Assembly (NCBI RefSeq): GCF_019264345.1 | Contig: NZ_JAHVAO010000001.1 | Location: forward strand, 1,488,001 to 1,552,000 | Reading direction: 5' to 3' | Length of the DNA stretch: 64,000 bases | Origin: Marinobacter arenosus | Lineage (GTDB): Bacteria; Pseudomonadota; Gammaproteobacteria; Pseudomonadales; Oleiphilaceae | Part shown: piece by piece, positions 1,472-17,764 of the stretch | How positions within the stretch are numbered: the stretch's first letter is position 1 | Layout of the letters: every line of letters starts with the position of its first letter | Position numbers and translations under genes: made by a program | Notes under the pieces: generated by a model | The model's database searches: none | The model's input: the letters and a program-made list of their open reading frames with translations, nothing else | Told to the model about the DNA's origin: nothing

Positions 1472-2455
1472 TCAAGGCAAGGCCGTATGAGACCCGGGGA
1501 TGTTTTTCAGAAGCTCGGCATTGGTGGGGTACTTCTCGAGCAGCTCAACCAGCTTTTTTGTGCCCTCCAGCGGTTTGAGACCGCCAAGCGCCCGGCGCAA
1601 CGCTCTTATTTTGTCTAAATCTTTTGGATCTAAGAGCAGCTCTTCACGGCGTGTACTGCTTTTCGAAATATCCAGCGCGGGAAAGATCCGCTGATTCGCA
1701 ACGTCTCTCGATAAAACCAGCTCCATGTTCCCCGTGCCCTTAAATTCCTCAAAGATCACCTGGTCCATACGGCTGCCGGTATCCACCAGAACGGTTGCCA
1801 AAATGGTCAGCGAGCCGCCATTCTCAATGTTTCGTGCCGCGCCAAACAACCTCCGCGGGATCTCCATCGCTCGAGCATCCATCCCGCCGGACATAGTACG
1901 ACCGCTGCTCTTTCTCTCCGCATTGTGCACACGCGCAAGCCTGGTGAGAGAATCAATCACAATCATGACGTTGTGACCCTCGCCAGCTTGTTGGCGAGCG
2001 ATATCAAGAAGCTCATTGGCAACGCGAGCGTGATGCGCATAGCTTTCATCCGACGAAGAAGCGTGTACCTCAGCCGGGACGCTACGCCTGAAATCGGTGA
2101 CCTCTTCGGGTCGCTCATCTACCAATAACGCGTAAAGTTTAATCTCGGGATACGCCTTTCCCACCGCCTGGCAAATATGCTTTAAGATCGTCGATTTTCC
2201 AGACCCCGGCGGTGCAACGATCAAACCTCGCTGCCCCATGCCAATCGGCGTGATCAAATCCATCGCGCGCACCGTGAGCTGTTCGGAACCCAACTCCAGG
2301 CGAATCCCCGGCGCCGGATTGATAGCCACAGCATTTAAAAAACGTTTTTGTGGATCAGCGTCACCTTCGACCCCAACCACAGCTTCGGCTTTCTCAGCCA
2401 CGGATTTAGCGTCTTTGTTTCGTTTTCGGGTTAAACCTAATGTCTTTCTCGTCAT
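1472..2455 (-). CDS. Rho-type transcription terminator paralogue lacking the RNA-binding N-domain
   Basis: 327 residues, against about 419 for standard Rho. After a short basic leader ([15 protein letters not shown]) the sequence enters the Rho ATPase core directly. Visible are Walker [10 protein letters not shown] (81-89; standard Rho has PPKAGKT), the catalytic DERPEE (113-118), Walker [13 protein letters not shown], the Q-loop region [14 protein letters not shown], the R-loop [11 protein letters not shown] and an arginine-finger segment STRREELL. All catalytic and ring-contact motifs remain, but the N-terminal OB-fold that makes the primary RNA-binding site is absent. It is therefore probably an active hexameric RNA translocase with altered RNA loading, alongside a normal rho elsewhere. 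No good Shine-Dalgarno is visible at ATG 2455, and no upstream coding sequence for a lost OB domain was seen. Confidence 0.85.
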
Positions 2456-2600
2456 GATTGTTTGATAGCTCGCAAAGGTCTGCGCTGACCGATGGGTTGG
2501 ACGCGTTGTGTGGGATTATTGATCGGGTGTGAACGAACGAAAGTGGGAACAAGGCCGCACTTGGCAGCATTCAGCCTCCGTACAGTATAGTATCCAAACA

Positions 2601-2623
2601 AATAAATCTGTCCCGGTTTTCGG
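2601..2623 (+). repeat. Dispersed repeat unit (ATCTGTCCCGGTTTTC type)
   Basis: AATAAATCTGTCCCGGTTTT at 2601-2620 is followed by CGG. Closely related units occur at 3401-3417 and 3658-3677 in the same orientation, and a paired form at 513-551. All are intergenic or at gene ends. Similar motifs are known around REP-associated tyrosine transposase loci in gammaproteobacteria, but no transposase gene is visible here. Confidence 0.55.
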
Positions 2624-2689
2624 ACCTTCGTGCGACTGCTCCACGGACCCAACGGAGGGCATTCAAACTGCAATCAGGTGACATTGGCA

Positions 2690-3370
2690 ATGAGCGAGAC
2701 AACCGAGGATAAAACCGCATCAGCCCCGCCACCGGCAAAGAAGGGCTTCAGTGGCTTGCATGTCTTTGGCATTGTCCTGCTCACCATCGTTGCCACCGTC
2801 GGCGTCGGTTACTGGTGGTTAAGCCACTATGTGTTTCCTGAGAACTTCGAACCCGTAACCCTGAATGCCAGTGAACAGGATTCCCTCAACAACAAACTGA
2901 ATACGCTGGGCATTGATACCCAAGGCGGCGAATCCGGCCGCCCGTTGCAGCCGGTACCCTACAGTGAGGAAGGCGCCAGCCGGGAAGTACGCTTTAGCGA
3001 GCGGGAACTCAACGGTATGCTGGCCAATAACACTGATCTGGCTCAAAGACTCGCCGTCGACCTTTCGGACGATCTGCTGAGCGCTGTCCTTCTGGTGCCT
3101 CTTGACGAGGACTTCCCGGTACTCGGCGGCCGAACCCTACGAGTCAATGCCGGTGTGGAACTCTCCTTTGCCAACGGTCGCCCCCTGGTCAAGTTAAGGG
3201 GCGTCAGCCTCATGGGCGTACCCATTCCGAATGCCTGGCTAGGCAACCTCAAGAATGTGGACTTGGTCAACGAGTTCGGCGCCAACCCGGGATTCTGGCA
3301 ATCCTTTGCAGCGGGTGTGGATTATATCCAGGTTGAGGATGGCCGGTTGCTCGTCCGGCTTAAGGAATAG
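2690..3370 (+). CDS. Membrane-anchored periplasmic protein of unknown function
   Basis: Start ATG 2690 (MSETTEDKTASAPP) is preferred over the longer frame because AGGTG lies 9 bases upstream. 226 residues: a short charged cytoplasmic tail, one membrane segment at about 25-47 (FGIVLLTIVATVGVGYWW), then a soluble domain that ends LEDGRLLVRL-like (VEDGRLLVRLKE). The domain contains repeated short beta-strand-like stretches and the phrase RFSERELNGMLANN, as in lipid- or membrane-associated arginine-rich anchors of unknown role. It is flanked on both sides by copies of the CTGTCCCGG repeat, so it may be a mobile or recently inserted unit. No function is assigned. Confidence 0.75.
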   Translation: MSETTEDKTASAPPPAKKGFSGLHVFGIVLLTIVATVGVGYWWLSHYVFPENFEPVTLNASEQDSLNNKLNTLGIDTQGGESGRPLQPVPYSEEGASREVRFSERELNGMLANNTDLAQRLAVDLSDDLLSAVLLVPLDEDFPVLGGRTLRVNAGVELSFANGRPLVKLRGVSLMGVPIPNAWLGNLKNVDLVNEFGANPGFWQSFAAGVDYIQVEDGRLLVRLKE

Positions 3371-3400
3371 CGCTGGGCCAGCAGAGAAGCCGAGAAAGTA

Positions 3401-3417
3401 GATCTGTCCCGGTTTTC
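3401..3417 (+). repeat. Dispersed repeat unit
   Basis: GATCTGTCCCGGTTTTC, 31 bases after the stop of the 2690 gene. It shares 16 bases with the unit at 2606-2621, which lies just upstream of the same gene, so this gene is bracketed by direct copies. Confidence 0.55.
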
Positions 3418-3720: not shown

Positions 3721-4704
3721 TCAACCTTCAAATTTCAACAAAACAATAGGCTCCTCGGATTCATCCTTTAACGATCTGATATATTCAGGCCCGGATATAC
3801 CTCGGGCATCTAATTCCTCGATCAGGATGGGCTTGGTCATCGCGGCATCGGTAACGTCACGGAGTCCAGTCACAAGATTTTTTACCCCTGCGGTCTTGTT
3901 GGCGTGCTCTCCAGAAACCCGCTCTCGGAGGTCCTGATGCATTATCAGACGCTTTTGGCTCAGGTCATAAGGCGTCAATTCGTCAAACAACTCGGAGTAT
4001 GAGTCTGCAATTGAGACTGAGTTATAGTGTGCAGAATCGTATTCATCAGCCAACAGGTAAGCCTCAACCCTCGCATTATCACTTAGCAGGAGCGCACTTG
4101 TGAGTTGGGTGAAGAGTTGTTCGTCAAAGGTATTCTGTTGCAGTTGGTATTCAATATGCCCGCGTATGCCCGACCGAAGCTCACTCAATCTGGATGCTGC
4201 TGACAACAATTCAGCTTTGGGGGCGGAAAGCCTTTTAGTGGCCTCGATACCTTCCAGGACACCGCGAAGACTATGCAAATCCCGATAGAGTTGATTCAGA
4301 TAGAGCTCCGCAAATTTCTGATCAATCTTGCGTGAGAGTTTCTCCAGAGTTTGTTTAATACTGCTGAGCTTTTTGCTGACGACAGCAAAACCAACAACAC
4401 TGACACCAATCCCGGCCAACCCCACGCCAAGGTTTGCGTATTGCAGCACCTGAAGACCTTCAACCATCTTTTTTAGCTGAGCCAGCTGAGCGTTGGCTAC
4501 CAATGAGGAGGTGGCATCCAGGGCGGAGAAAGGTGATCCCGCCAGTGAACCCACCAGCTGTTGACCGAGACTTGTTTCTTGGAGGTGCGCAACAATTTTT
4601 CCAGTTTGGGTGTCTTTTATAATGGAGCCAAACCTTTCCAGCGATTTGGTAGCAATCCCATATTGGAATTCCACTGGCACCTGAAATATAAACTTCTCAA
4701 ACAC
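3721..4704 (-). CDS. Helical protein with a central hydrophobic segment (pair member B)
   Basis: 327 residues from GTG 4704, overlapping the end of the upstream gene by 8 bases in another frame, so the two are translationally coupled. The first ~85 residues are amphipathic. A hydrophobic stretch follows at about 90-112 (YANLGVGLAGIGVSVVGFAVV), then a long heptad-rich helix (KKLSSIKQTLEKLSRKIDQKF) and a helical C-terminal half rich in Leu, Arg and Glu. The pattern of a membrane hairpin followed by coiled coil recalls alpha-pore-forming toxins and dynamin-associated helical proteins, but I see no diagnostic motif and assign no family. It lacks a signal peptide. Confidence 0.75.
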   Translation of the reverse strand: MFEKFIFQVPVEFQYGIATKSLERFGSIIKDTQTGKIVAHLQETSLGQQLVGSLAGSPFSALDATSSLVANAQLAQLKKMVEGLQVLQYANLGVGLAGIGVSVVGFAVVSKKLSSIKQTLEKLSRKIDQKFAELYLNQLYRDLHSLRGVLEGIEATKRLSAPKAELLSAASRLSELRSGIRGHIEYQLQQNTFDEQLFTQLTSALLLSDNARVEAYLLADEYDSAHYNSVSIADSYSELFDELTPYDLSQKRLIMHQDLRERVSGEHANKTAGVKNLVTGLRDVTDAAMTKPILIEELDARGISGPEYIRSLKDESEEPIVLLKFEG

Positions 4705-5389
4705 GGTGCAGCTCCTCCAGGTAAGCAGTTGCGGCAGATCTTATGTGGTGTTGGAGCGCAGTTCTTACGGAAGGCTTTTCAGGTGAGGCGCCCAAAACAG
4801 TCGATTTGATAGTCTCTCCCACTGAATCCTTGAGCTCACGAATGGCTTTATCCTTGAAGGTTGAAAGCCTGGACCCGCCAAAAACCGCCATTGTGCCTAT
4901 AACCGCTGCACCGCCGATAGCAATGGGCCAGCTGACAACTGTCACACCAAGCAACCCGAGACCAAATCCTGCAGACTGGGCTGACAATGTTGCAACAGCC
5001 GGTATGCCCAAAAGCGCAACTCCCGTAGTGGTTGTTGCCAAGCCTAGCTGGGTCACATTTTTAAACGAAGTGTCCGCAGCAACCCATTCGTTAACACTGG
5101 CCTTATATTCCAGAATATTTTGATTAATTGACTCGAGATCCTTCTCGGCTAATCTCATGATCTGTTCGGACTCTCTGCTCACCCAACGTTTATAGGTCGG
5201 CTGAAGGTGTTTTTCAGCAAAGTCCTTCGTTCTAAAGGTTTCCTTAAATGAGATGTGATCAATCTGCACATTAAGAAGTGCAATTAACTCCGGAAGGTCC
5301 TTTTCAAGTGTTGCGGGAACTTGCGTCAACCATTTGTCTCGCCAATCGAGGATTTGGCGCCGCAAACCCATTAATTCCATGTCTCTCAT
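4697..5389 (-). CDS. Helical protein with a long hydrophobic hairpin (pair member A)
   Basis: 230 residues from ATG 5389. The N-terminal ~110 residues are charged helices. A long Gly/Ala-rich hydrophobic hairpin spans about 115-170 (LGLATTTTGVALLGIPAV, then GFGLGLLGVTVVSWPIAIGG), followed by an amphipathic helix (FKDKAIRELKDSVGETIKS). It is the first gene of a two-gene unit with the 3721 gene. Membrane insertion of a paired complex is a reasonable inference, and a toxin or defence effector is possible, but nothing in the sequence proves it. The pair sits beyond the last attC of the cassette array, so it may be a flanking chromosomal unit and not a cassette. Confidence 0.75.
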   Translation of the reverse strand: MRDMELMGLRRQILDWRDKWLTQVPATLEKDLPELIALLNVQIDHISFKETFRTKDFAEKHLQPTYKRWVSRESEQIMRLAEKDLESINQNILEYKASVNEWVAADTSFKNVTQLGLATTTTGVALLGIPAVATLSAQSAGFGLGLLGVTVVSWPIAIGGAAVIGTMAVFGGSRLSTFKDKAIRELKDSVGETIKSTVLGASPEKPSVRTALQHHIRSAATAYLEELHRV

Positions 5390-5453: not shown

Positions 5454-5537
5454 TTATAACGCCGCCAGCATGCGCGGCTTTTTAGAGGAGGCATAGCCGC
5501 AACGAAAAAGACGTCGCCATGCCTGGCCTTGTTAGGC
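5454..5537 (-). repeat. attC recombination site of cassette 5 (array end)
   Basis: On the minus strand it begins with R'' GCCTAAC (5531-5537), which supplies the TAA stop of the 5532 gene. The fold arms are GCCAGCATG against CATGCCTGGC, with one extra unpaired base as is typical of attC. It ends at GTTATAA (5454-5460). That last core is poor, as expected where an array meets non-cassette DNA. Confidence 0.75.
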
Positions 5538-6230
5538 ACCAACTGCATCCAACGCCTGTTCAGCTGTGAGATATGCTTTGCGTGCTTCATCGAAGCTGAC
5601 ATCTCTGCCATGAACCGCCCGATTGCAAATCGCGATTGAATACGATAGCCGTTCGGCGAGATTAGCCGATATGTACTCGCGCTCTGACAAAATCCGGAGC
5701 ACCTGGCCGGCACTCTTGAGATGCCGATCCTTGAAGCCGTGTTCAGTTGCAAACTTTCTAAGCCGAATTTCAACTTCCCGCCTCAGCCGTGACAGCGCGT
5801 TCCAAACTTCCCCGGCTTCAAGCTCCGAAACGACCTTGGACATGGGACCCTGGGGTGCCTTTCGAGTGAATTTGAGCTCACCAAACTGTGACGTAACGTT
5901 CGAAGTAGCCTCTTCGGCCTTTTCAACTTCTTCATCTGTACCCAGAAAGTCCACTAAACCGGTCAAGTACTTATCAATAGTTTGGGCGACATCGCGATTG
6001 ACGGTGTATTCTGCAACGTTGAATTCGCCAATCGTCTCATCTAAGAAGGCACCTAAAGCATCTAGGTCATTTGCCTCTAGCACTGTCTCAAGCCGCTTGG
6101 CCCGCGCCTCCCTGAGCTTGCGCTTTCTATCCCTTATGCTGTCGAACGCCTGAATGGCAGTAGCCGATATCGAACTTGCGGCAGCCGCCAGAGCGGCAGT
6201 CCCGACTAAGAGGGAAAATGGATCGCTCAT
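5532..6230 (-). CDS. Cassette 5 gene b: membrane-anchored protein with DUF4145/HEPN-like C-terminus
   Basis: 232 residues from ATG 6230, overlapping the stop of the 6227 gene (ATGA), so translationally coupled. A short hydrophobic N-terminus (LLVGTAALAAAASSISATA) is followed by a basic helix (RDRKRKLREARAKRLE), a helical middle, and a C-terminal region from about 150 with the phrase AICNRAVHGRD. That phrase resembles the conserved (R)xxHG segment of DUF4145/HEPN-type helical bundles; the spacing is not the classical Rx4-6H, so nuclease activity is doubtful. The protein ends ...DAVGA with the TAA lying inside the attC core GCCTAAC. Resistance or defence is a guess based on the cassette setting. 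Confidence 0.75.
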   Translation of the reverse strand: MSDPFSLLVGTAALAAAASSISATAIQAFDSIRDRKRKLREARAKRLETVLEANDLDALGAFLDETIGEFNVAEYTVNRDVAQTIDKYLTGLVDFLGTDEEVEKAEEATSNVTSQFGELKFTRKAPQGPMSKVVSELEAGEVWNALSRLRREVEIRLRKFATEHGFKDRHLKSAGQVLRILSEREYISANLAERLSYSIAICNRAVHGRDVSFDEARKAYLTAEQALDAVGA

Positions 6231-6616
6231 GAGGTTTCCCTGTAACGCTGGATGAAGTCCTTGATACCTCGAAATCTACTGTAAAGCTTCAGTGCTGAAG
6301 TGTACTGCTCATGCATTCTTCTAAGCTGAAAAAGTCGAACAACGCCAAATGTAGCACTGGCGGTTGCTAGAACCAGCGCTCCAGTTAATTCTAGTCCGCT
6401 GATTGTGATAGTTGATCCGGTTGCGGCAATAGACAAAGATCGAAAGTAGGCAATCAAAATAGCGACAGCCAAAGAAGCTGAGAGCCCGAGCGACCATTTA
6501 ATTACTGTCATTTCTCGCTCAAAATGCCAACCGAAGATCGTTTCAAGATGCTTTTCACCGTCTGGAACGTCCCCGGACACCAAGTCAATTAGCTGTCTAA
6601 GTTTTATCGACTTCAA
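6227..6616 (-). CDS. Cassette 5 gene a: small two-helix membrane protein (129 aa)
   Basis: The start is TTG 6616, chosen because a full AGGAGGT ribosome site lies 7 bases upstream and no ATG fits as well. Two membrane segments are visible at about 38-58 (IKWSLGLSASLAVAILIAYF) and 70-92 (ISGLELTGALVLATASATF). The soluble ends are charged (RLFQLRRMHEQY). It overlaps the 5532 gene by four bases. The two products probably work together at the membrane. No family recognised. Confidence 0.75.
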   Translation of the reverse strand: MKSIKLRQLIDLVSGDVPDGEKHLETIFGWHFEREMTVIKWSLGLSASLAVAILIAYFRSLSIAATGSTITISGLELTGALVLATASATFGVVRLFQLRRMHEQYTSALKLYSRFRGIKDFIQRYRETS

Positions 6617-6623
6617 ACTAGCA

Positions 6624-6630
6624 ACCTCCT
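6624..6630 (-). promoter_or_regulatory. Strong ribosome-binding site fixing a TTG start
   Basis: AGGAGGT on the minus strand, 7 bases before TTG 6616. It is the best Shine-Dalgarno in the island and decides the start of the 6227 gene. Confidence 0.7.
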
Positions 6631-6640
6631 ATCCCTTGCG

Positions 6641-6699
6641 GCCTAACGCTGCCAGCGGAGCGCAGCCTAGCTTCGTCCTGCTGGCAGGGCATGTTAGCC
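6641..6699 (-). repeat. attC site of cassette 4
   Basis: Minus-strand R'' GGCTAAC (6693-6699), folded arms CTGCCAGC (6649-6656) and GCTGGCAG (6680-6687), and a canonical GTTAGGC (6641-6647) at the far end. 59 bases, close to the classical 59-base element. It starts three bases after the stop of the 6702 gene. Confidence 0.85.
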
Positions 6700-6701
6700 A
6701 A

Positions 6702-7994
6702 TTACCATTGGGGCACATTTGGTTGCTTACCCCTTGATGCAGAAACCCTGTTGATTACACGAGTGTACTCATCCTTGAAATCCCGGGTTTTCAGCAAACC
6801 AATCGCGTGATTTTTCATTTCTAAAACTGTATTTATTGGAATGCTTGCAATTAGTCCAATAACATCTTTTATAAACCCATATATAGTTTCGCAGGCATTA
6901 TCCGGCCCTTCACTCAACTGATAAAAATCTTTACCTTCATGAACGAGCTTGTTCCTTACATCAGTGTATAGTCGATCATATTCTTCAAGTTTCGTTCCAA
7001 AGCTGGCAGGATCCCCACCGGAAAGTAATGATGCGATATAGGTTCTATGCTTCCAACCATTCCAGTCTGGGTCGGCCAGGCCATCTAGAGTAAATACTAA
7101 ATTCAGGAATTGAGATTCATTGCCTATTGAATAGAACGACTGTCGACAAGATCTTAATGCTGAAATAACAGCCTTTGCCATTTCATTCTCAAATTCATTG
7201 CCATATATGAAAGAAAGATAATCAATCCCTGGAACAAAAAAATCATCTACTTGAGGGCCTAGCCAGTTATTACTAACAGAGATTGGCTTAGATATTCCGC
7301 TTAGCTCAAAAGGTTTTAGATGAGTTTCTCCCAGCGGAATAATATTTACAGAATAGAAGCCATCATCCGTTTGGCCAGCGGGGTTTGGTGTGAATTCTGG
7401 AGTCAAAAAAGAGCTATGCGAATACCTCACTATATCCATTGCATGCTCTGCAAGCGATAGGCATTTTTTGATAACGTGGTCGTTATGTTTTATGCTATTA
7501 TTTATACGTAAAAGATCTTTGTATTTTAGGTCTATTTCAAATTGAAGATATTCACACTCGAAATCAGCCAGCCTTTCATAAGGATTTTCATCAAAAATCT
7601 TTTTACAAAAAAAAGTATATTTACCTAATGTTAAAGTTTTTTGAAAATATACTTTTTCAAGAGGGACAATTACTATACAATCCAAGTTTCTTTCATCATC
7701 CTCCAGCTTTGACAATTCAGAATTTGAATCTTGGGTTACTGTCTTTTCAATTACAACCCAATCGAAACACTCCTGGAAATCAGCAAGCATCTCTTCGCCG
7801 TTTCTTTTAATGGAATCATCATAGATATTAAATGTTATGCCATCACCTTCAGGAAAAGGGCTTGCCCAATAGCCTATCTCTCTTAATTTCTCTAAAGATT
7901 TTTCAATTTTCGCCTTCTCATCGATAAATTCGCGCTTATTCCAAAGCAAATTGCCTGAGTAATTCTCTCTTGGAGGTAATAACCTTGCTTTCAT
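6702..7994 (-). CDS. Cassette 4 gene: Apea-like HEPN domain protein
   Basis: 430 residues from ATG 7994, with AAGGA six bases upstream. The C-terminal third carries VRNKLVHEGKDF, with Arg347 and His352 in the Rx4H spacing of HEPN RNases, and preceding helices (LEEYDRLYTD) typical of the Apea-like HEPN family. The first ~300 residues are a mixed alpha/beta region of unknown role, perhaps a sensor. No membrane segment. The gene is notably AT-rich beside the core genes, as expected of a captured cassette. HEPN proteins often cut RNA in phage defence and toxin systems, so an anti-phage role is plausible but not shown; no partner nucleotidyltransferase is adjacent. Confidence 0.75.
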   Translation of the reverse strand: MKARLLPPRENYSGNLLWNKREFIDEKAKIEKSLEKLREIGYWASPFPEGDGITFNIYDDSIKRNGEEMLADFQECFDWVVIEKTVTQDSNSELSKLEDDERNLDCIVIVPLEKVYFQKTLTLGKYTFFCKKIFDENPYERLADFECEYLQFEIDLKYKDLLRINNSIKHNDHVIKKCLSLAEHAMDIVRYSHSSFLTPEFTPNPAGQTDDGFYSVNIIPLGETHLKPFELSGISKPISVSNNWLGPQVDDFFVPGIDYLSFIYGNEFENEMAKAVISALRSCRQSFYSIGNESQFLNLVFTLDGLADPDWNGWKHRTYIASLLSGGDPASFGTKLEEYDRLYTDVRNKLVHEGKDFYQLSEGPDNACETIYGFIKDVIGLIASIPINTVLEMKNHAIGLLKTRDFKDEYTRVINRVSASRGKQPNVPQW

Positions 7995-8008
7995 TCATTT
8001 TCCTTTGG

Positions 8009-8082
8009 CGGCTGACGTCAGTAGTAATGGTCGCCGAGGGGTCGCAGCGTAGTAGGCGCCTCGCTGACCATATGGTTAGGCA
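8009..8082 (-). repeat. attC site of cassette 3
   Basis: R'' GCCTAAC (8076-8082) contains the TAA stop of the 8076 gene. Stem elements are TGGTC with GACCA and CGAGG with CCTCG, separated by a small mismatch. The far core is GTCAGCC (8009-8015), one base off GTTAGCC. That off-consensus core is still the partner of GGCTAAC at 6693-6699, so the variation belongs to cassette 4. Confidence 0.75.
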
Positions 8083-8546
8083 TTTGAATCCTCCGACCAA
8101 GGCTGGTGTGGCTCAGAGTGCGTAAGCCCGTTCTCTTCTAACTCATTAATAGCTCTGTCACCGAGCAGAAGTAGGTTCTCTGCAGCATCAGGGGACAACT
8201 CCCCCGCTTTATAAAGTGGAAGCATCAACTCTAGATTTGCAAGGTAACCAGACAGCCGATCCTGCTCTTTAGGTGTCAAAATCTCCGACTCGGCCATCAA
8301 ATTTTCAAGCCTTTCAAGCATAACGGCTAATTCGTCGCTTGAGACAATAACGGATTCAGGCGTATTGATACTTGGATCGACAAGGGCCCCAAATGTCGGT
8401 CTTAGCCTGTAAATTTTGATGCTGAGCCGCATCCGGAGATTCCTGGCTTTTGACTTAGTCGCCCAGTTGGCTCGAAATATTGGAATCAAGGCAACTATCG
8501 CAGCGAAACATGCGGCTATTGATGAAATTGCCTGCCAAGATTCCAT
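8076..8546 (-). CDS. Cassette 3 gene: small membrane-anchored protein (156 aa)
   Basis: Starts at ATG 8546 with GGAAGG upstream. An N-terminal membrane helix (about 6-25, AISSIAACFAAIVALIPIF) is followed by a basic cluster (RANWATKSKARNLRMR) and an acidic, helical soluble domain with no cysteine or recognisable catalytic motif. The topology suggests a membrane anchor with a cytoplasmic domain. The TAA stop is part of the attC core. No function can be given. Confidence 0.7.
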   Translation of the reverse strand: MESWQAISSIAACFAAIVALIPIFRANWATKSKARNLRMRLSIKIYRLRPTFGALVDPSINTPESVIVSSDELAVMLERLENLMAESEILTPKEQDRLSGYLANLELMLPLYKAGELSPDAAENLLLLGDRAINELEENGLTHSEPHQPWSEDSNA

Positions 8547-8565
8547 TGGGCTTCCCTTCCTTTGT

Positions 8566-8611
8566 GCCTAATGCGGCGTCTCACGCGTCCGTCTTACGTG
8601 ATTTGTTAATG
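8566..8611 (-). repeat. attC site of cassette 2
   Basis: A short site of 46 bases: R'' CATTAAC (8605-8611), arms TCACG and CGTGA, and ATTAGGC (8566-8572), where the usual G of GTT is A. CATTAAC is exactly complementary to GTTAATG at 9824-9830, the other end of the same cassette. Confidence 0.7.
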
Positions 8612-8612
8612 A

Positions 8613-9806
8613 CTACTTCCTACCTAGAGCAGAGATTGCATCCTTCAATAGGGCAATAAGCGATCTGCTACTTACTGATTCTGCATTTGCATCGATATTA
8701 TTATCAAAAGATTGACCGAAGAAACTATTCGAGAGTGCCTCTTTAATCTTATGTTTGGCATCATCCGGCAAATTCTCCAAGTAAGCGTCTATCGATGCCA
8801 GTTCTAGCTCAGTTCTTTTGTTCCGCTCTTCAATCGCCCTATGTCGACTCGACTCTCTTGCGGCATATGTAGCAGGTATTATTAGAATCAAACCGGCCGT
8901 AAACCTAAAGGCTGTTAGCCAAGGATCGAAACCATTCCTTGCCGCAGAAATCAATGTGACCCCTATAACAACAAACATCGCAGAGAAGCATCCGAGTGCT
9001 ATCCAACGCATCAGGTTCGCAGAGCTTCTCTCCCTCTCGGCTATGCCTCTATAGTTGCCCGTTAAGCCGATATTACCTACAAGCTGAACGATTTTCTCTG
9101 CTTCCTTCTTTTTTGAAGTGAGCTCGTCGACAATCTGTTTTGCTGTACCCTTTAACTCACTTTCTACCTCTTCATAACGACCTATCATTTTTTCTTGATT
9201 ATCTTGAAATATATTTTCCCTTTCGGACTCCTTTTCCGATAACGATTTATCTATCTCGTTAAACTTGGTGGAGATCTTTTCGTTCAGAGAGGCTAGCTCG
9301 CCATCAAGCTCATTGACTCGATTTTCGGAAACCTGGAGCGACCCTGAAACTTTATCGGCGATGTCTACTAACTCATCATTTTTCTGACGAAGTTCAGCAA
9401 TTACGTTTTCTGCGAGCTGCTTAAAAGATACTGCTTCGGACGCTCTTACTCCCCCTTCCGGGCTGTCAATACTGATGAGCAAGCGTGCCTGATTCAACGC
9501 AGCATCGGCCTGATTTGATGCGTTGGTCAGATGTCCGGCGTTGCTATTAGTGTTGTATTGGTTCAGTTCGTTGAGTATACCCTGTGCAGATTTTTCAAGA
9601 TTACTGAGTCGTCCTGCACTAGTTAAAACTGGACTGGCAAGCTCTAATCTTTGATCGATATAGCTAACGGCCTGCCGCAATCCGTCGAGATAATCAATAG
9701 CTGGAGAATCTGAGGCTTTGTTCTCAGCTTCCTTGAGCGCTTCCCTCAATTGAGAAACCACTTGGTGTACGTTGTGGTTCTGAAAGTTGTCTTCGAGTAA
9801 AGCCAA
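8613..9806 (-). CDS. Cassette 2 gene: coiled-coil protein with two membrane helices
   Basis: 397 residues. The start is TTG 9806, supported by AGGAG seven bases upstream. Residues 1-110 are helical; about 115-245 form a long coiled coil (LDGELASLNEKISTKFNEID). Two membrane segments follow at about 268-288 (WIALGCFSAMFVVIGVTL) and 298-315 (AFRFTAGLILIIPATYA), then a charged helix and a C-terminal tail of about 80 residues. The layout, coiled coil then hairpin anchor, resembles membrane-tethered sensor or motor-like proteins of phage-defence systems, but no known domain is visible. Confidence 0.75.
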   Translation of the reverse strand: MALLEDNFQNHNVHQVVSQLREALKEAENKASDSPAIDYLDGLRQAVSYIDQRLELASPVLTSAGRLSNLEKSAQGILNELNQYNTNSNAGHLTNASNQADAALNQARLLISIDSPEGGVRASEAVSFKQLAENVIAELRQKNDELVDIADKVSGSLQVSENRVNELDGELASLNEKISTKFNEIDKSLSEKESERENIFQDNQEKMIGRYEEVESELKGTAKQIVDELTSKKKEAEKIVQLVGNIGLTGNYRGIAERERSSANLMRWIALGCFSAMFVVIGVTLISAARNGFDPWLTAFRFTAGLILIIPATYAARESSRHRAIEERNKRTELELASIDAYLENLPDDAKHKIKEALSNSFFGQSFDNNIDANAESVSSRSLIALLKDAISALGRK

Positions 9807-9823
9807 AATCTATCTCCTAGGAT

Positions 9824-9901
9824 CATTAACGCAAAGCGCACCGCTGGCCTTTACAGAGCGAAGCGGCGTAAAGGACATCCGTGTGACGCGCATGGTTAGA
9901 C
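9824..9901 (-). repeat. attC site of cassette 1
   Basis: R'' GTCTAAC (9895-9901), inner arms CCTTTAC and GTAAAGG, outer pairing of GCGCAC-type with GTGTGACGCGC-type sequence, and GTTAATG (9824-9830). R'' is exactly complementary to the cassette's start core GTTAGAC at 10918-10924. It begins 63 bases after the stop of the 9965 gene. Confidence 0.8.
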
Positions 9902-9964
9902 ATCTCTTAAGCATTTCCGCATGTGCCAATTCCGTTCAGCCCTATTAGTCAAATCAGTTCAAGA

Positions 9965-10900
9965 TTATTTCTTCCTGTTACCTTTTCCTACGTTATTCAT
10001 GCTTCTGTAGTATCCTTCAATGTCTCCATACTCAGCAATCATTCTTAAAGGATTGTTAACAAGCGCGTTTTCTACATGATAATCTTCTATCGCGCAAAAA
10101 GAGCATAAATCGTGATCCTCACTTAACGGCTCACCACATTTTTCACAGACAAAATCGTATGATTTAAATCCATCTCCATCATGCTTATACCTTATCCCTT
10201 CATTGTCTACGAAATATGGACTTGGAGAAATTCGACTAATCCTTAGCTCTAGGTAATCAGCACCGATGTTATCCGCCACCTGTTTGGCACTGGTTTTGGC
10301 ATCTTCGTTAGCCTTTCCACCTACGATTATTGCGCTAATACAATCTGACGGGAACTTTAGAAGCATCAAGTCTCCACTGACTTCTACGTCACCATCGCTG
10401 GCAACTAACCTTCGCTCTTGCTCATAAGACCAGTGTGAGTGTTTTGTATAGTAGGCTGCGCTAAAAACACCTTTTTGAAGCAGATAATAATATCTAGGCT
10501 TTCCGATATGACATGCCCGGCTAAGCATATCTAATAGGTGATCACTCGGAGAGTCTTCATAGTCAATATCGCCGAAGCCAATATTCGGAAAGTTTTCTGA
10601 AAATCGCTTTTCATCGAACTCTAAAACAATTCCCGTATGACTGTGTCCATAGTGCGCCCACATGGGAATAACCGCAGGTGACTTAGAAAAGCATGTGGTC
10701 GGAAGTTGCGGCAAATCTCCAATAGCTTCATTGTAAGTCGCCAGCATCTCGGGAGACTGCTCAAAATTTATTGTTAGAAACAGCTCATATGGATCATTAA
10801 AGTCTTTAGGGTATGAACATTTAAAACTGCAGACATTGGGATCTTCTAAAGCCAACTGGAATACGTCCACACCCATATATTTGTATATCTTCGACGACAT
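9965..10900 (-). CDS. Cassette 1 gene: DUF2971 protein with C-terminal zinc ribbon
   Basis: 311 residues from ATG 10900, with a strong AGGGGGG ribosome site. DUF2971 features are clear: PKDFNDPYE (about 31-39), CFSKSP and MWAHYGHSHTGIVLEFD (about 80-96), and YEQERR near 160. A zinc ribbon CEKCGEPL...CSFC follows at about 252-272. DUF2971 proteins are widespread in accessory DNA and some occur in defence clusters, but the biochemical role is not known to me. It is the cassette nearest the attI-like site, so it would be the most recently inserted and the best expressed. Confidence 0.8.
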   Translation of the reverse strand: MSSKIYKYMGVDVFQLALEDPNVCSFKCSYPKDFNDPYELFLTINFEQSPEMLATYNEAIGDLPQLPTTCFSKSPAVIPMWAHYGHSHTGIVLEFDEKRFSENFPNIGFGDIDYEDSPSDHLLDMLSRACHIGKPRYYYLLQKGVFSAAYYTKHSHWSYEQERRLVASDGDVEVSGDLMLLKFPSDCISAIIVGGKANEDAKTSAKQVADNIGADYLELRISRISPSPYFVDNEGIRYKHDGDGFKSYDFVCEKCGEPLSEDHDLCSFCAIEDYHVENALVNNPLRMIAEYGDIEGYYRSMNNVGKGNRKK

Positions 10901-10917
10901 TCGCCGCCCCCCTTTTT

Positions 10918-10934
10918 GTCTAACAGTGTTTAGG
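10918..10934 (-). mobile_element. attI-like simple site at the head of the cassette array
   Basis: On the minus strand it reads CCTAAACACTGTTAGAC: two inverted core boxes, CCTAAA and GTTAGAC, with a 4-base spacer. The attI1 simple site has the same layout, CCTAAA then a short spacer then GTTAGGC. Cassette 1 begins right at this core. An AT-rich stretch at about 10985-11045 upstream could hold a cassette promoter. The integrase expected to the right is replaced by the NERD gene. Confidence 0.5.
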
Positions 10935-11085
10935 TACCGCGCTTCGTTATTGCAATCGTTTTACTGTCACAAAACGCTCCGATACTCACCTCACAATACT
11001 GAATATAATTTTCATGAAATCAATTCTCTATAAATGATCCTAATGCTGCTCACGCTGTAATCATTTGACTGCCTCGTTATTCCAG

Positions 11086-11859
11086 TCATGCAGCACTAAC
11101 AATCCCGCGACACGTCGGAAAGGACTTACAGCCCAAGAACTCCTTTCCTGCATTCGCCCCACGCTTCACCGTGCGCTTAACCATCTCCCCCCGGCACTTC
11201 GGGCACCGCGGCTCACTTTCTTTCTTGACCACGATCTCCTTCACATGCGCAACGTGCCTTCGGTGATTCCTGAATGTTGCCGCCAGTCGTCCGGACTCGA
11301 TAGTTTCGATAACCGTCTGAACCTCGTCATCCGACAGCCGCGTTTCCATTTGGGCTTTAATGAAGCGGATATATCCGCCCCCAGAGGTCACATTTTCTGG
11401 CATAGGCGTTTTGAACGTCGAATCCCCAACGAAAACCACCAACGAATGCACCTGCTCGTCGCCCAAGCCCAACAAGCTTTGCAGCGTTTTGACGTGTTTG
11501 TAGTTCTGGTGCAGCGGGTTCTGGAATTTCTGGGAATGCTTGAAGATTTTCTGGGTCCACTGGCGCTGTTTGGCGCTGCCAAAGATCCAGCCTTTCAGGT
11601 TCTTGGTTTCCACCACGAACATCCCATACCGGGAGACGATGATGTGGTCGATCTGAGTGGTTCCGTCTTCCGTGGGCAGGGTGACATTCTTGATAAGGTG
11701 GTAGTTATCTTTGTCGAGGAACAGGCGAGAAGAGGCGTTAACAATAAATTCGCCCAGATGGCCTTTGAACCAGGGAGAACGCAGGATGGCTAACAGCAGT
11801 ACGAAAGGTATGAAATACCAGAAGTGTAAAAGAGGCTTTATCAGTACTGAGGGGTCCAT
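11086..11859 (-). CDS. NERD-domain nuclease-like membrane protein with zinc ribbon
   Basis: 257 residues. A membrane helix lies at about 12-28 (HFWYFIPFVLLLAIL), followed by a NERD domain with GHLGEF (33-38), IDHIIVSRYGMFVVETKN, and the restriction-endonuclease-fold triad Asp71, Glu84, Lys86 (ExK). The C-terminus is a topoisomerase-type zinc ribbon, CPKCRGEM...GCKSFPTC (about 218-250). NERD proteins are predicted DNA or RNA processing nucleases, often with single-domain zinc ribbons like this. It is not flanked by attC on its far side, so it is chromosomal DNA next to the array. It probably reads toward the array head from its own promoter. Confidence 0.85.
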   Translation of the reverse strand: MDPSVLIKPLLHFWYFIPFVLLLAILRSPWFKGHLGEFIVNASSRLFLDKDNYHLIKNVTLPTEDGTTQIDHIIVSRYGMFVVETKNLKGWIFGSAKQRQWTQKIFKHSQKFQNPLHQNYKHVKTLQSLLGLGDEQVHSLVVFVGDSTFKTPMPENVTSGGGYIRFIKAQMETRLSDDEVQTVIETIESGRLAATFRNHRRHVAHVKEIVVKKESEPRCPKCRGEMVKRTVKRGANAGKEFLGCKSFPTCRGIVSAA

Positions 11860-12302: not shown

Positions 12303-12941
<639 letters not shown>

Positions 12942-12979
12942 TGTTTACCTCCTTTCGTTTGTCTCAGTCCGAGTAGGTC

Positions 12980-13085
12980 GGCAAGTAGCAAGAGCTTTTT
13001 GAAAAACGCTACAAGCACATCCCTGTGCGCTTGAGCTCCGCCATCCTTGGCTCCGCACATTTTCAAAAAGCTCTTGCTACTCGCC
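12980..13085. repeat. Variable-arm palindromic repeat, copy 1 (ureF-ureG gap)
   Basis: Arms of 26 bases at 12980-13005 and 13060-13085 pair at 25 of 26 positions (GGCAAGTAGCAAGAGC... with its complement). Between them is a 54-base core holding two small hairpins, GCACATCCCTGTGC and GCCATCCTTGGC. Copies 2 (16088-16201) and 3 (55743-55831, reversed) share the core but have completely different arms. In mRNA it would form a very stable hairpin between the two cistrons. Confidence 0.8.
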
Positions 13086-13108
13086 TTCCCCATCATTGGA
13101 ATTGCTCT

Positions 13109-13816
13109 CTAACTTCTGAAAAGCCGTGAATACTGGGTTTCGTGAAGGGCGCTGCCGAGCGCCAGGCCCGGCAAAACCGGGCCGAGTTCGTGGTCGTCTT
13201 TCTGCAGGGCGTTGTCCACGGCCATCACCAGTTTCGGACGCAGCCGTTCGGTCAGGCGCTGGGCGGCGGTGTGGCCCAGGGGCATGGCCTTGCAGGCGAC
13301 GGCGAGCTGGTTTTCCAGCCAGGCCCAGGCAAAGCCGAGCAGGGTTTGCCTGGCCGGCACGCGGCGCATGTGGGCGGCCCAGGCGAACAGGGTGACGTAA
13401 CCGGGGGCTTCCGGTAGCAGGCCGTCCTCCGGCAGCAGTTCCAGGCTGCCGAGCAGGCGCACCAGGGCGGCGCCGAGGCGGATGTCCTCATCCGTCAGTT
13501 CGGCGGTTTCCCGGGTGGCGTGCAGCCAGTCGTTCCACTGGGCCACGCTTTGGCCATCGCCGTTCGCCCAGGCTTCCTGAACCCGGATCAGCAGGGGCAG
13601 TTCGCAGTTGGTCAGGCCGTCTTCCAGCACGCCTTCCAGCCAGTCCCCCAGCTCGTCTTCATTATTCACCCAGCCCAGCTCAAAGGCGCTTTCCAGGCCC
13701 TGGGACCAGGCAAAGGCACCGATAGGCAGCGCGGGGCTGACCAGTTGCAGCAGGCCCAGCAGGGCGAGATCGCCCACCGCCGTCTGGCTGCTGTCAGTGA
13801 TGGTGAGCGTGGTCAT
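13109..13816 (-). CDS. ureF: Urease accessory protein UreF
   Basis: 235 residues from ATG 13816 (MTTLTITDSS), the usual UreF length. The longer open frame upstream is only the ureE gene read in another frame. Typical UreF sequence follows: LLQLVSPALPIGAFAWSQGLE near the N-terminus, then helices and PLGHTAAQRL in the C-terminal third. UreF acts as an adaptor between UreD and UreG in the nickel insertion complex. Its start lies 23 bases inside the 3' end of ureE, in the stretch coding for the histidine-rich tail. Confidence 0.93.
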   Translation of the reverse strand: MTTLTITDSSQTAVGDLALLGLLQLVSPALPIGAFAWSQGLESAFELGWVNNEDELGDWLEGVLEDGLTNCELPLLIRVQEAWANGDGQSVAQWNDWLHATRETAELTDEDIRLGAALVRLLGSLELLPEDGLLPEAPGYVTLFAWAAHMRRVPARQTLLGFAWAWLENQLAVACKAMPLGHTAAQRLTERLRPKLVMAVDNALQKDDHELGPVLPGLALGSALHETQYSRLFRS

Positions 13817-14324
13817 GGTGATGGCCATGGCTGTGTGAGTGACCGTGGGAATGCCCATTGCTATTGCCGGCTTGTGCATAGGCGCCTGGTTCGGGGTCGA
13901 ACGGTGCGCGGTGGTGTTCCAGCGTCGCGCCCAGGCGGTCGGCCAGTTCTTCCAGCACGTGATCCGGCGGGAAGCGTACCCAGCCGGTTTGGCCGTCTTC
14001 CCTGCCCTCGTCGCTGCCAATCGCCAGCGACACGTGGCGGTTGCCCAGGTGGTAGCACAGCCTTGCCATGGCCAGTCCTGGCTCGATGTAAGCGGTTACT
14101 ACCGGCTCATCGGCGGCGCGGATGCGGATGATCTCGCCGGTCTCGGCCTGCAGGAAAGCGCCTTCGCGCAGCACCGGACCCCGATCGAGGAACAGGCCGA
14201 CGTCGTAACCGGTGTCGGTTTTGGCGCGCAGGCGGCCGCGCATGCGCAGCTCGAAGGGCAGCGTGAGGTGGTCGTGGATTTCTGTGGTCTCGACCGGTCC
14301 GACCCGTTGGGTAAGTTCAAGCAT
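13794..14324 (-). CDS. ureE: Urease accessory nickel chaperone UreE
   Basis: 176 residues, CAGGAG before ATG 14324. An N-terminal UreE domain (MLELTQRVGPVETTEIHDHL, RGRLRAKTDTGYDVGLFLDRG) is followed by a metal-binding domain with CYHLGNRHVSL, and a C-terminal His-rich tail (HSHGHSHSHGHHHDHAHHH) that should store or hand over Ni(II). The tail is longer than in many UreE proteins. Confidence 0.95.
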   Translation of the reverse strand: MLELTQRVGPVETTEIHDHLTLPFELRMRGRLRAKTDTGYDVGLFLDRGPVLREGAFLQAETGEIIRIRAADEPVVTAYIEPGLAMARLCYHLGNRHVSLAIGSDEGREDGQTGWVRFPPDHVLEELADRLGATLEHHRAPFDPEPGAYAQAGNSNGHSHGHSHSHGHHHDHAHHH

Positions 14325-14358
14325 GTCGGTCTCCTGGAACAGCCATGAGCTGTCTCTC

Positions 14359-16062
<1,704 letters not shown>

Positions 16063-16087
16063 TTTTTCCCCTCGTGTTCTGGTGCCT

Positions 16088-16201
16088 GGGCCGGTCGAGA
16101 CATCCCTTCCGGGAAACGCTCCTGGCGGCACATCCATGTGGCGCTTGGGCTCCGCCATCCATGGCTCCGCACATTCCCGGAAGAGATGCCCCGACCGGCC
16201 C
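16088..16201. repeat. Variable-arm palindromic repeat, copy 2 (ureB-ureC gap)
   Basis: Arms of 28 bases (16088-16115 and 16174-16201) pair at 25 of 28 positions and begin GGGCCGGTCGAGACATC. The 58-base core resembles copy 1 almost base for base: AACGCT, GCACATCC, CGCTTG, GCTCCGCCATCC, TGGCTCCGCACATT. The arms share nothing with copy 1. It fills nearly the whole gap between ureB and ureC. Confidence 0.8.
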
Positions 16202-16207
16202 TGCTAA

Positions 16208-16525
16208 TCATTTCTTGGAGTCCAACTGGCCCATGACTTCTTGGCGGAAACCGTAGATTTCGCGGCTGCCGCTGAACGGAATCAGGGTGACTTCCCGGCT
16301 TTGGCCGGGTTCGAATCGGATGGCGGTACCGGCGGCGACGTCGAGTCGGTAGCCCCTGGCCTTGGCGCGGTCGAAATCGAGAGCGGGATTGGCTTCGGCG
16401 AAGTGGTAGTGGGAGCCGATCTGGACCGGGCGGTCGCCGGTGTTGGCCACGTCGATCTGGATGCGTTCGCGGCCTTCGCAGAGTTCGATGTCGCCGTCTT
16501 TCAAATCGTATTCACCGGGGATCAT
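16208..16525 (-). CDS. ureB: Urease beta subunit UreB
   Basis: 105 residues from ATG 16525, AAGGAG upstream. It matches the whole UreB family: [20 protein letters not shown], the [17 protein letters not shown] signature, [14 protein letters not shown] and GSREIYGF. It is a structural subunit of the (alpha-beta-gamma)3 urease trimer. Start 10 bases after ureA. Confidence 0.97.
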
Positions 16526-16535
16526 GGCGCGCTCC

Positions 16536-16838
16536 TTACACGATGGGGTTGTGGACGGTGACGAGTTTGGTGCCGTCCGGGAAGGTGGCTTCCACCTGCA
16601 CTTCGTCGACCATCTCGGCGATGCCGTCCATCACGTCGTCGCGGGTGAGGATTTCGGTGCCGGCGGTCATGAGTTCGGCCACGGTGCGCCCTTCCCTCGC
16701 CCCTTCCATGATTTCGGCGCTGATGAGGGCGACGGCTTCGGGGTAGTTGAGTTTCAATCCCTTGGCTTTGCGACGTTCGGCCAGCAGGGCTGCGGTGAAC
16801 AGCAGCAGTTTGTCTTTGTCTCTGGGCGTTAATTCCAT
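16536..16838 (-). CDS. ureA: Urease gamma subunit UreA
   Basis: 100 residues, full family length. [23 protein letters not shown] at the N-terminus, [22 protein letters not shown] in the middle and [11 protein letters not shown] at the end are diagnostic. Separate ureA and ureB genes are the usual proteobacterial state. Confidence 0.97.
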
Positions 16839-16867
16839 CAGTTATCGCTCCGTTAATCGCATATCGT

Positions 16868-17764
16868 TCAGGTCAGCCAGATTCTTGGAACGCTGGCAGG
16901 CTGGCCGGTGAGTCTTGGTCTGAGCAGTTCCCAGGCTTGCTGGCATATCGCCCAGGCTTCGTTGCGTTCCTGCCCCAGATAGCGCAGCAGCACCACGCCC
17001 CGGCGGCGGGTGACCGCCCAGCGGTGGTTGGCGGGCAGGGTTTCCCGGAGTTCGTCGATGGCGGCGGCTTCGTCGTCCAGGCCGACGACCCACAAGGTGG
17101 CCTGGACGGTGGCGCCGCCCTGGCCCCAGTGGCCTTTGAATCTCGGGTGGTTCGGGTCCATGGGTTGGCGTTCCAGCCACAGGGGACGGCCGTCCATAAG
17201 CAGGCGGAATTTCTGTTCCAGGTGGCCGGAGACGAACGGCAGTTGGCTGGCCGGGCGACCGAGGGCAAGGATTTCCCAGCCGATGCATTGGGCGCCGGTG
17301 GCCAGTTCGATGGTGGTGCTCTGTTCACCCCGGGAGCCGTCGAAGGCGAGGGTTTCCTGGGGCAGGTATTCGAGGGTGCCGCCCTTCTCCACAGTCAAGT
17401 GGGTGTGCTGGGCCCAGGCGACGCCGTGGCTGTCGGCCTTGTAGAGTTTGGCGGCGGCCGGGGTCGTCAGCAGGGTGTGGGCACCCTCGCCGACCCGGGC
17501 CTGGATGCTCAGGGCATCGCCGCTGACCAGCCCACCGGGCGGGTGCAGCAGGTACACGTGGCAGCAGCCGTTGCGACCTTCCGGGTAGAACGGGCGCTGG
17601 ACCCGCAGCGGGCCCTGATGACGCACATGGGTCATGCGGGTGGCGGTGTTGTCGCCATCCGGTCGGGCGTCGAAGCCCAGGGAGATCGACGCCGCCCAGC
17701 GCCGGCCTTCGTCGAAGCGATGGCCGGAGTCGTTGGCGGCAGGCAAAGGCTGAAAGACCGTCAT
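16868..17764 (-). CDS. ureD: Urease accessory protein UreD
   Basis: 298 residues from ATG 17764, its start overlapping the stop of urtE by three bases. UreD/UreH features: LQRPFYPEG-like segment (QRPFYPEGRNGCCHVYLLHPPGG is conserved in spirit), TTPAAAKLYKAD and a beta-rich fold with an arginine-rich C-terminal half. It binds apo-urease first and conducts nickel through its tunnel with UreF and UreG. The tight coupling to urtE joins urea uptake and urease in one transcript. Confidence 0.94.
   Translation of the reverse strand: MTVFQPLPAANDSGHRFDEGRRWAASISLGFDARPDGDNTATRMTHVRHQGPLRVQRPFYPEGRNGCCHVYLLHPPGGLVSGDALSIQARVGEGAHTLLTTPAAAKLYKADSHGVAWAQHTHLTVEKGGTLEYLPQETLAFDGSRGEQSTTIELATGAQCIGWEILALGRPASQLPFVSGHLEQKFRLLMDGRPLWLERQPMDPNHPRFKGHWGQGGATVQATLWVVGLDDEAAAIDELRETLPANHRWAVTRRRGVVLLRYLGQERNEAWAICQQAWELLRPRLTGQPASVPRIWLT

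What the first reader, a model, noticed from the sequence alone, without database searches (positions are those of the whole stretch)
5460..10934. Five-cassette integron array without an integrase, confirmed by matching cassette ends
Five minus-strand units are separated by attC-like sites. In each unit the R'' core of its own attC is complementary to the core at its own upstream end, although the cores differ between units (GTCTAAC/GTTAGAC, CATTAAC/GTTAATG, GCCTAAC/TTAGGC, GGCTAAC/GTCAGCC, GCCTAAC/GTTAGGC). That is the footprint left by insertion of circular cassettes. Two genes use the TAA inside GCCTAAC as their stop. No intI is in the window.
Basis: partly seen in the sequence, partly recalled or inferred. 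Interest (0 to 1): 0.8.

Follow-up and report, generated by a model that had tools for sequence, protein, structure and literature searches.

The report
Integron array at an integrase-less attI
The five gene cassettes are real, and they are attached to an integron docking site that has no integrase gene beside it, lies after the urease genes, and carries different cassettes in related marine bacteria, which suggests that an integrase made elsewhere can load it.

Summary
In detail: five minus-strand cassettes at 10923-5460, each R'' matching its own upstream core (29 of 30 bases; 2 of 720 assignments do as well). An attC model built without window sequence finds two sites strongly and one weakly, and misses two; one of the missed sites is truncated. 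An intact intI exists on another contig.

Window 10921-11069 resembles the attI beside intact intI genes (28 of 38 core bases to G123; GTCAAATGATT at -149 against -147). It lies 3' of the urease operon. By strict pattern 14 of 124 Marinobacter genomes have such a site, 11 after ure genes. Uncut alignments of 49 of 55 species pairs stop 0-13 bases past GTTA; cassettes beyond differ. The first cassette's R'' equals the junction core in 8 of 12 integrase-less loci.

Best reading: a decapitated integron whose attI stayed usable, probably through IntI in trans (not shown). Twelve of 20 other integrase-less arrays also start at an attI-like site. Known parts, new arrangement.

The parts
10921..11069 (-). 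Integrase-less attI: core ...GCAATAACGAAGCGCGGTACCTAAACACTGTTA (10921-10953), distal motif GTCAAATGATT (11059-11069)
   Evidence: the window site is in the profile, so its hit there is by construction
10918..10924 (-). Junction core GTTAGAC (attI G, cassette TTAGAC)
9830..10923 (-). Cassette 1; gene 9965-10900, DUF2971, candidate defence family PDC-S31
9824..9901 (-). attC of cassette 1
   Evidence: R3 44.5 bits E 3.7e-8
8572..9829 (-). Cassette 2; gene 8613-9806, coiled-coil protein, no assigned function
8566..8611 (-). attC of cassette 2, truncated, R' ATTAGGC
8016..8571 (-). Cassette 3; gene 8076-8546, no family match
8010..8081 (-). attC of cassette 3, R' GTCAGCC
   Evidence: R3 15.3 bits E 0.33, weak; fold z -0.70
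6647..8015 (-). Cassette 4; gene 6702-7994, homologues named Apea-like HEPN by a source
6641..6699 (-). attC of cassette 4
   Evidence: fold z -2.10, 7 of 200 shuffles; not found by R3
5460..6646 (-). Cassette 5; two overlapping genes 6227-6616 and 5532-6230
5454..5537 (-). attC of cassette 5
   Evidence: R3 60.2 bits E 7e-12; fold z -3.11
11086..11859 (-). NERD-domain gene between the urease operon and attI
   Evidence: PF08378 E 5.7e-35
12303..17764 (-). Urease genes upstream of attI on the same strand (ureG, ureC, ureD tested)
   Evidence: Pfam; Rfam 5_ureB_sRNA

Best explanation
This is a decapitated chromosomal integron. The integrase gene is gone, but the attI remains, after the urease operon and here a NERD gene. 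Circular cassettes recombine there by the usual attC x attI reaction, cut between G and TT. Shown by sequence: similarity to attI sites beside intact intI genes, a conserved upstream flank that stops at the core, exact cassette junctions, different cassettes in related species, and no intI in the stretches read. Inferred: that intI was lost before these species split, that an IntI made elsewhere in the cell, or one since lost, loaded the site afterwards in trans, and that the cassettes are transcribed from upstream (urease/NERD read-through or a promoter in attI).
For: Blastn: homology after the NERD gene with four relatives stops at window 10920 or 10921, inside GTTA|GAC. Of 55 pairs among 11 urease-linked genomes, 49 align across the site on uncut sequence, and the alignment ends 0-4 bases past GTTA in 45 and 6-13 in 4. 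Pattern (the G061 site, up to 3 mismatches) in 14 of 124 genomes, once each, 0 for the reversed pattern; one place, in G123, is within 0.2 kb of an intact intI. GTCAAATGATT lies at -149 in the window and -147 in the intI-linked G123 and G042 sites; window against the G123 distal 127 bases z 4.7, 0 of 300 shuffles. First-attC R'' equals the junction core in 8 of 12 integrase-less loci, permutation mean 0.83, never 8 in 200,000. G031 and G106: flank before GTTA 87-90% identical, then 2 and 4 attC hits in different DNA, then 94.8% identity from base 1985/2019, at the R' core of the last attC of each. tblastn with two IntI finds none in the window or the urease-linked loci.
Against: No recombination was observed. 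The window genome's only intact intI has a different attI beside it, so whether it acts on this site is unknown. Distal-part similarity is uneven: z from -0.8 to 6.3 over 18 pairs. First-attC match is inexact in 4 of the 12 loci, and G077 and G037 have mutated cores that do not match. Over all 34 integrase-less attI loci with an attC hit, 21 match exactly. G061 and G105 have no intI match at E<=1e-60, so their arrays may be frozen. One window attC is truncated.
Confidence: 0.7

Rival explanations
1. Frozen remnant: intI was lost lineage by lineage, and the cassettes date from before the loss and have not moved since except by deletion.
For: CALINs are proposed to be degraded integrons (PMC9024848 passages). 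Four of 20 other integrase-less array starts keep intI fragments. The second window attC is truncated. Some genomes have no full intI.
Against: Species with the same upstream flank and no intI there carry different first cassettes with exact junctions. Deletion of cassettes alone could give different first cassettes from one long ancestral array, so this is not excluded.
Confidence: 0.2
2. Secondary site: cassettes landed at a chance GTT site after the NERD gene, and the likeness to attI is convergent.
For: Off-target IntI activity is on record (PMC10127599, search listing and start of abstract only). The distal motif was not found by the expression used in G105 and G109.
Against: The G061 site shares 30 of 33 bases with the attI of an intact intI, the distal motif has the same spacing within 2 bases, and 12 of 20 other integrase-less array starts have an attI-like hit, all in the array direction, 0 on reversed sequence.
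Confidence: 0.07
3. The arrays differ because whole blocks were exchanged by homologous recombination through the shared flanks, without IntI.
For: Flanks are 87-95% identical between several species, enough for homologous exchange.
Against: The change points lie at cassette cores on both sides in G031/G106 and at GTTA in the pairs tested, which homologous exchange does not predict.
Confidence: 0.03

Closest known systems
CALIN (cluster of attC sites lacking an integron-integrase)
   Same: Two or more attC sites, no intI nearby; known at conserved loci in Xanthomonas and said to be mobilised in trans (PMC12444791 passages)
   Different: Here the cluster has an attI at its start; IntegronFinder does not look for attI outside class 1 (PMC9024848 passages)
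Sedentary chromosomal integron
   Same: attI, attC array, cassettes of mostly unknown genes; the G123 integron of the genus is the intact counterpart
   Different: intI is missing and host genes (urease operon, NERD) take its place
Integron remnant of Treponema phagedenis
   Same: attC sites kept at the old integron locus after loss of intI (PMC3607928 passages)
   Different: There no attI was described for the remnant in the passages read and it was judged static
Delta-attI-type gene cassettes of mobile integrons
   Same: attI sequence away from its intI and still used by IntI (PMC12901181 abstract)
   Different: There attI stands in a cassette; here it is a chromosomal docking site

Membership tests
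Integron cassette array | attC sites by sequence and structure | tested here: met
   two strong and one weak hit of five with model R3
Integron cassette array | R'' of a cassette pairs with the core at its own start | tested here: met
   29 of 30 bases, 2 of 720 assignments
Integron cassette array | every attC recombinogenic | tested here: not met
   site 8566-8611 is truncated and its R' lacks the cleaved G
CALIN | at least two attC and no nearby intI | tested here: met
   threshold of two from PMC9024848
Complete integron | intI next to attI | tested here: not met
   no TIGR02249 or tblastn match in the window at the array
attI | sequence related to attI sites beside intI genes | tested here: met
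   28 of 38 core bases to G123, motif spacing -149 and -147, distal z 4.7; weaker against G055 and G042
attI | cassettes inserted at G|TT of its core | tested here: met
   exact R''/core match in the window and in 8 of 12 loci
attI | bound and cut by an IntI | not testable with these tools
   needs a recombination assay

The most novel reading that the evidence does not exclude
Integrase-less attI sites are a standing second set of docking platforms in Marinobacter: attI modules of at least three types, fixed at chromosomal loci such as the 3' end of the urease operon, loaded and emptied in trans by IntI made elsewhere. Many integrase-less cassette clusters would then be attI-anchored outposts of the resident integron and not random insertions or dead remnants, and cassettes at the urease site could be expressed with that operon.
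Probability: 0.45. Interest if true: 0.75.

Novelty: new variant of a known kind. Interest (0 to 1): 0.6.

Why it matters
Integrase-less clusters are about as numerous as complete integrons in one census (2961 CALIN, 2760 complete; PMC9024848 passages), and their origin is little tested because attI is not searched for outside class 1. If many keep a usable attI, one integrase could feed several sites, including sites next to host operons, and attI profiles would separate dead remnants from live outposts.

Tried and rejected
Considered and set aside. (1) The short Rho paralogue (1472-2455) as a cassette gene: 61 of 61 attC hits near it in 38 Marinobacter loci are on its strand, but I saw no attC of its own, DNA just upstream of its start is alike in several other genera, and an intI lies within 10 kb of it in Endozoicomonas and Gilvimarinus, so I read it as a neighbour of integrons. 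(2) The repeat CCGGGACAGA as a second cassette system: transposase-like DNA lies beside it in L034 and L036 (my reading, no family search). (3) A sixth cassette 3721-5389: its expected R'' TTATAAC was not found after the gene, only one-mismatch words.

Led nowhere. RNAalifold gave no pairs for the first attC alignment, so model R1 is sequence only; I set pairs by column complementarity and rebuilt from its matches. Phrase searches for attI-like sites returned mostly unrelated papers. The intI column is void, the query having been translated in the wrong frame; replace it. In one search the upstream stretches were cut at GTTA, so their common end there means nothing; one search repeats the comparison uncut. 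Pfam, NCBIfam and PHROGs gave little for cassette genes 2 to 5. No structure was predicted.

Not done: other genera were not searched for integrase-less attI; no strains of the window species were compared (one genome per species is held).

Full report
WHAT WAS CHECKED. The array is on the minus strand. Cores and R'' boxes were read directly. In each cassette R'' pairs with the core at its own start (29 of 30 bases) and less well with the next core (18 of 30); 2 of 720 assignments are as good. That is the footprint of circular cassettes. No IntegronFinder model was at hand, so I built one. A simple R''/R' and fold rule gave 47 attC sites on the array strand of loci beside intI. With pairs set by column complementarity the model found 303 matches at E up to 0.1 in 22 loci; the best 150, and all 120 of a second search over 14 loci, are on the expected strand. 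Model R3 is built from those 120, with no window sequence. In the window it gives two strong hits and one weak one and misses two sites.

THE GENOME. The window is G000:C1:1488001-1552000. An intact intI lies at C5:513-1448. R3 finds 85 attC sites in the genome (150 of 2323 first-look candidates were scored). All but nine lie at the start of C1, the ends of C2 and C3, and on C6 and C7. The window array shares only attC stretches with the rest of the genome, 34 to 82 bases long.

THE ARRAY STARTS AT AN attI. Homology after the NERD gene with G061, G095, G079 and G014 stops at window 10920 or 10921, inside GTTA|GAC. The stretch resembles the attI beside intI in G042, G072 and G055. The G061 33-mer, with up to 3 mismatches, occurs in 14 of 124 genomes, once each, and the reversed pattern in none. 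The G123 place is within 0.2 kb of an intact intI. Direct comparison of the window with the G123 attI: 28 of 38 core bases, GTCAAATGATT at -149 against -147, distal 127 bases z 4.7 with 0 of 300 shuffles. Against G055 and G042 the window's distal part is weak (z 1.7 and 1.0), and over 18 pairs z runs from -0.8 to 6.3. So the core is well supported and the distal part unevenly so.

WHERE IT SITS. Of the 14 genomes, 11 have the site after ure genes on the same strand: G000, G014, G030, G031, G061, G076, G078, G079, G095, G105, G106. G109 has no ure gene in the stretches read and 16 attC hits after the site at E up to 0.1 or more (one search lists its rows). G120:C46 is a 4-kb contig. G123 is the intI-linked one. 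By profile G005, G072 and G038 are also urease-linked, and G037, G120:C1 and G018 have mutated cores there.

CASSETTES DIFFER THERE. First-attC R'' against junction core: exact in G000, G061, G095, G079, G030, G031, G106, G109; one mismatch in G078, G105, G076; two in G014; no attC hit in G082; no match in G077 and G037, whose cores are mutated; exact in the intI-linked G123. Permuting R'' among the 12 gives a mean of 0.83 and never 8 in 200,000; with six more loci, all exact, 14 of 18, mean 1.22, never reached. Sixteen further loci with an attC hit give 7 exact; for eleven of these I supplied one attC each from the genome-wide lists, which may not be the first of the array. In all 21 of 34; four loci with an attI hit had no attC hit supplied (L265, L024, L261, L259). 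On uncut sequence 49 of 55 pairs of the 11 urease-linked genomes align across the site; 45 end 0-4 bases past GTTA and 4 end 6-13 past it. G031 and G106 then differ for 2 kb (2 and 4 attC hits) and resume at 94.8% identity at base 1985/2019, at the R' core GTTAACT of the last attC of each. G076 and G105 resume at 3349/4460 (93.6%). G014 and G095 are 92.9% identical for 1.2 kb before GTTA and share nothing of 110 bases or more in the first 5.5 kb after it.

OTHER INTEGRASE-LESS ARRAYS. I fetched the 5' ends of 20 clusters in 9 genomes, picked from the hit lists, not at random. Twelve have an attI profile hit (E up to 0.002) in the array direction, 7 of them at E below 1e-5: eight of type A (L272, L273, L275, L276, L278, L279, L281, L284) and four of type C (L271, L277, L287 with a mutated core, L288). 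The reversed sequences give none. Eight have none, one of them cut to 1 kb by its contig end. intI fragments lie in L273, L278, L284 and L286. A type B attI stands before arrays near the Rho paralogue in G056 and G023. The window genome has another such site at C1:456195 with an attC 376 bases on, but with three mismatches to the core. Types A, B and C are my labels.

HOW IT PROBABLY WORKS. Published assays place IntI and attI on separate plasmids (PMC9668308 passages), so cis linkage is not needed. I infer that intI was lost from the urease-linked platform before these species split and that an IntI made elsewhere loaded it since. For the window genome this is the weakest step, as its intI has another attI type beside it. 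The promoter scan found 1 site with 1.1 expected, so expression by read-through from ure/NERD is a guess.

CARGO. Cassette 1 matches PDC-S31, E 3.8e-27. Cassette 4 has homologues that a source calls Apea-like HEPN. Past the last attC, 3721-4704 matches JukB (E 2.6e-11) and 4697-5389 LeoBC (E 1.1e-6). These are model matches, not tested functions.

LITERATURE. Ten searches. I saw passages of PMC9892861, PMC9024848, PMC12444791, PMC3607928, PMC9668308 and PMC9229058 and the abstract and outline of PMC12901181. Trans mobilisation of CALINs and CALINs at conserved loci are in print. I saw no report of a conserved integrase-less attI used across species, but only open-licence papers are held and attI is hard to search for, so this is weak.

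LIMITS. One genome per species, many drafts. Model E-values are rough. The species are related and not independent samples. Absence of intI means no match in the stretches fetched or at the thresholds.

Noticed in passing
window 1472-2455: Short Rho paralogue without the N-terminal RNA-binding part. attC hits near it are on its strand in 61 of 61 cases over 38 Marinobacter loci and 24 of 24 over 55 loci of other genera; intI lies within 10 kb of it in Endozoicomonas (L151) and Gilvimarinus (L157). It may mark an old integron locus.
   Followed up: partly
window 2598-2616 and 3394-3412: Repeat with CCGGGACAGA on the minus strand flanking an 800-base unit (gene 2630-3370) that occurs at other positions around the Rho paralogue in G061, G072, G091, G002 and G039.
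   Followed up: partly
window 3721-5389: Two overlapping genes just past the last attC match JukB and LeoBC defence models.
   Followed up: no
window 11060-11090 and relatives L021, L202: A palindrome GCTTCGTTATTGCAATAACGAAGC after the NERD stop in relatives repeats the TTGCAATAACGAAGC of the attI core 150 bases on; its role is unknown.
   Followed up: no
L129: A Rho paralogue 95% identical to the Marinobacter one in a record titled Desulfobacterales, probably a misbinned contig.
   Followed up: no
L048:6513-6752: An 80-residue intI fragment, 81% identical to the G123 integrase, beside the array near the Rho paralogue in G009.
   Followed up: no
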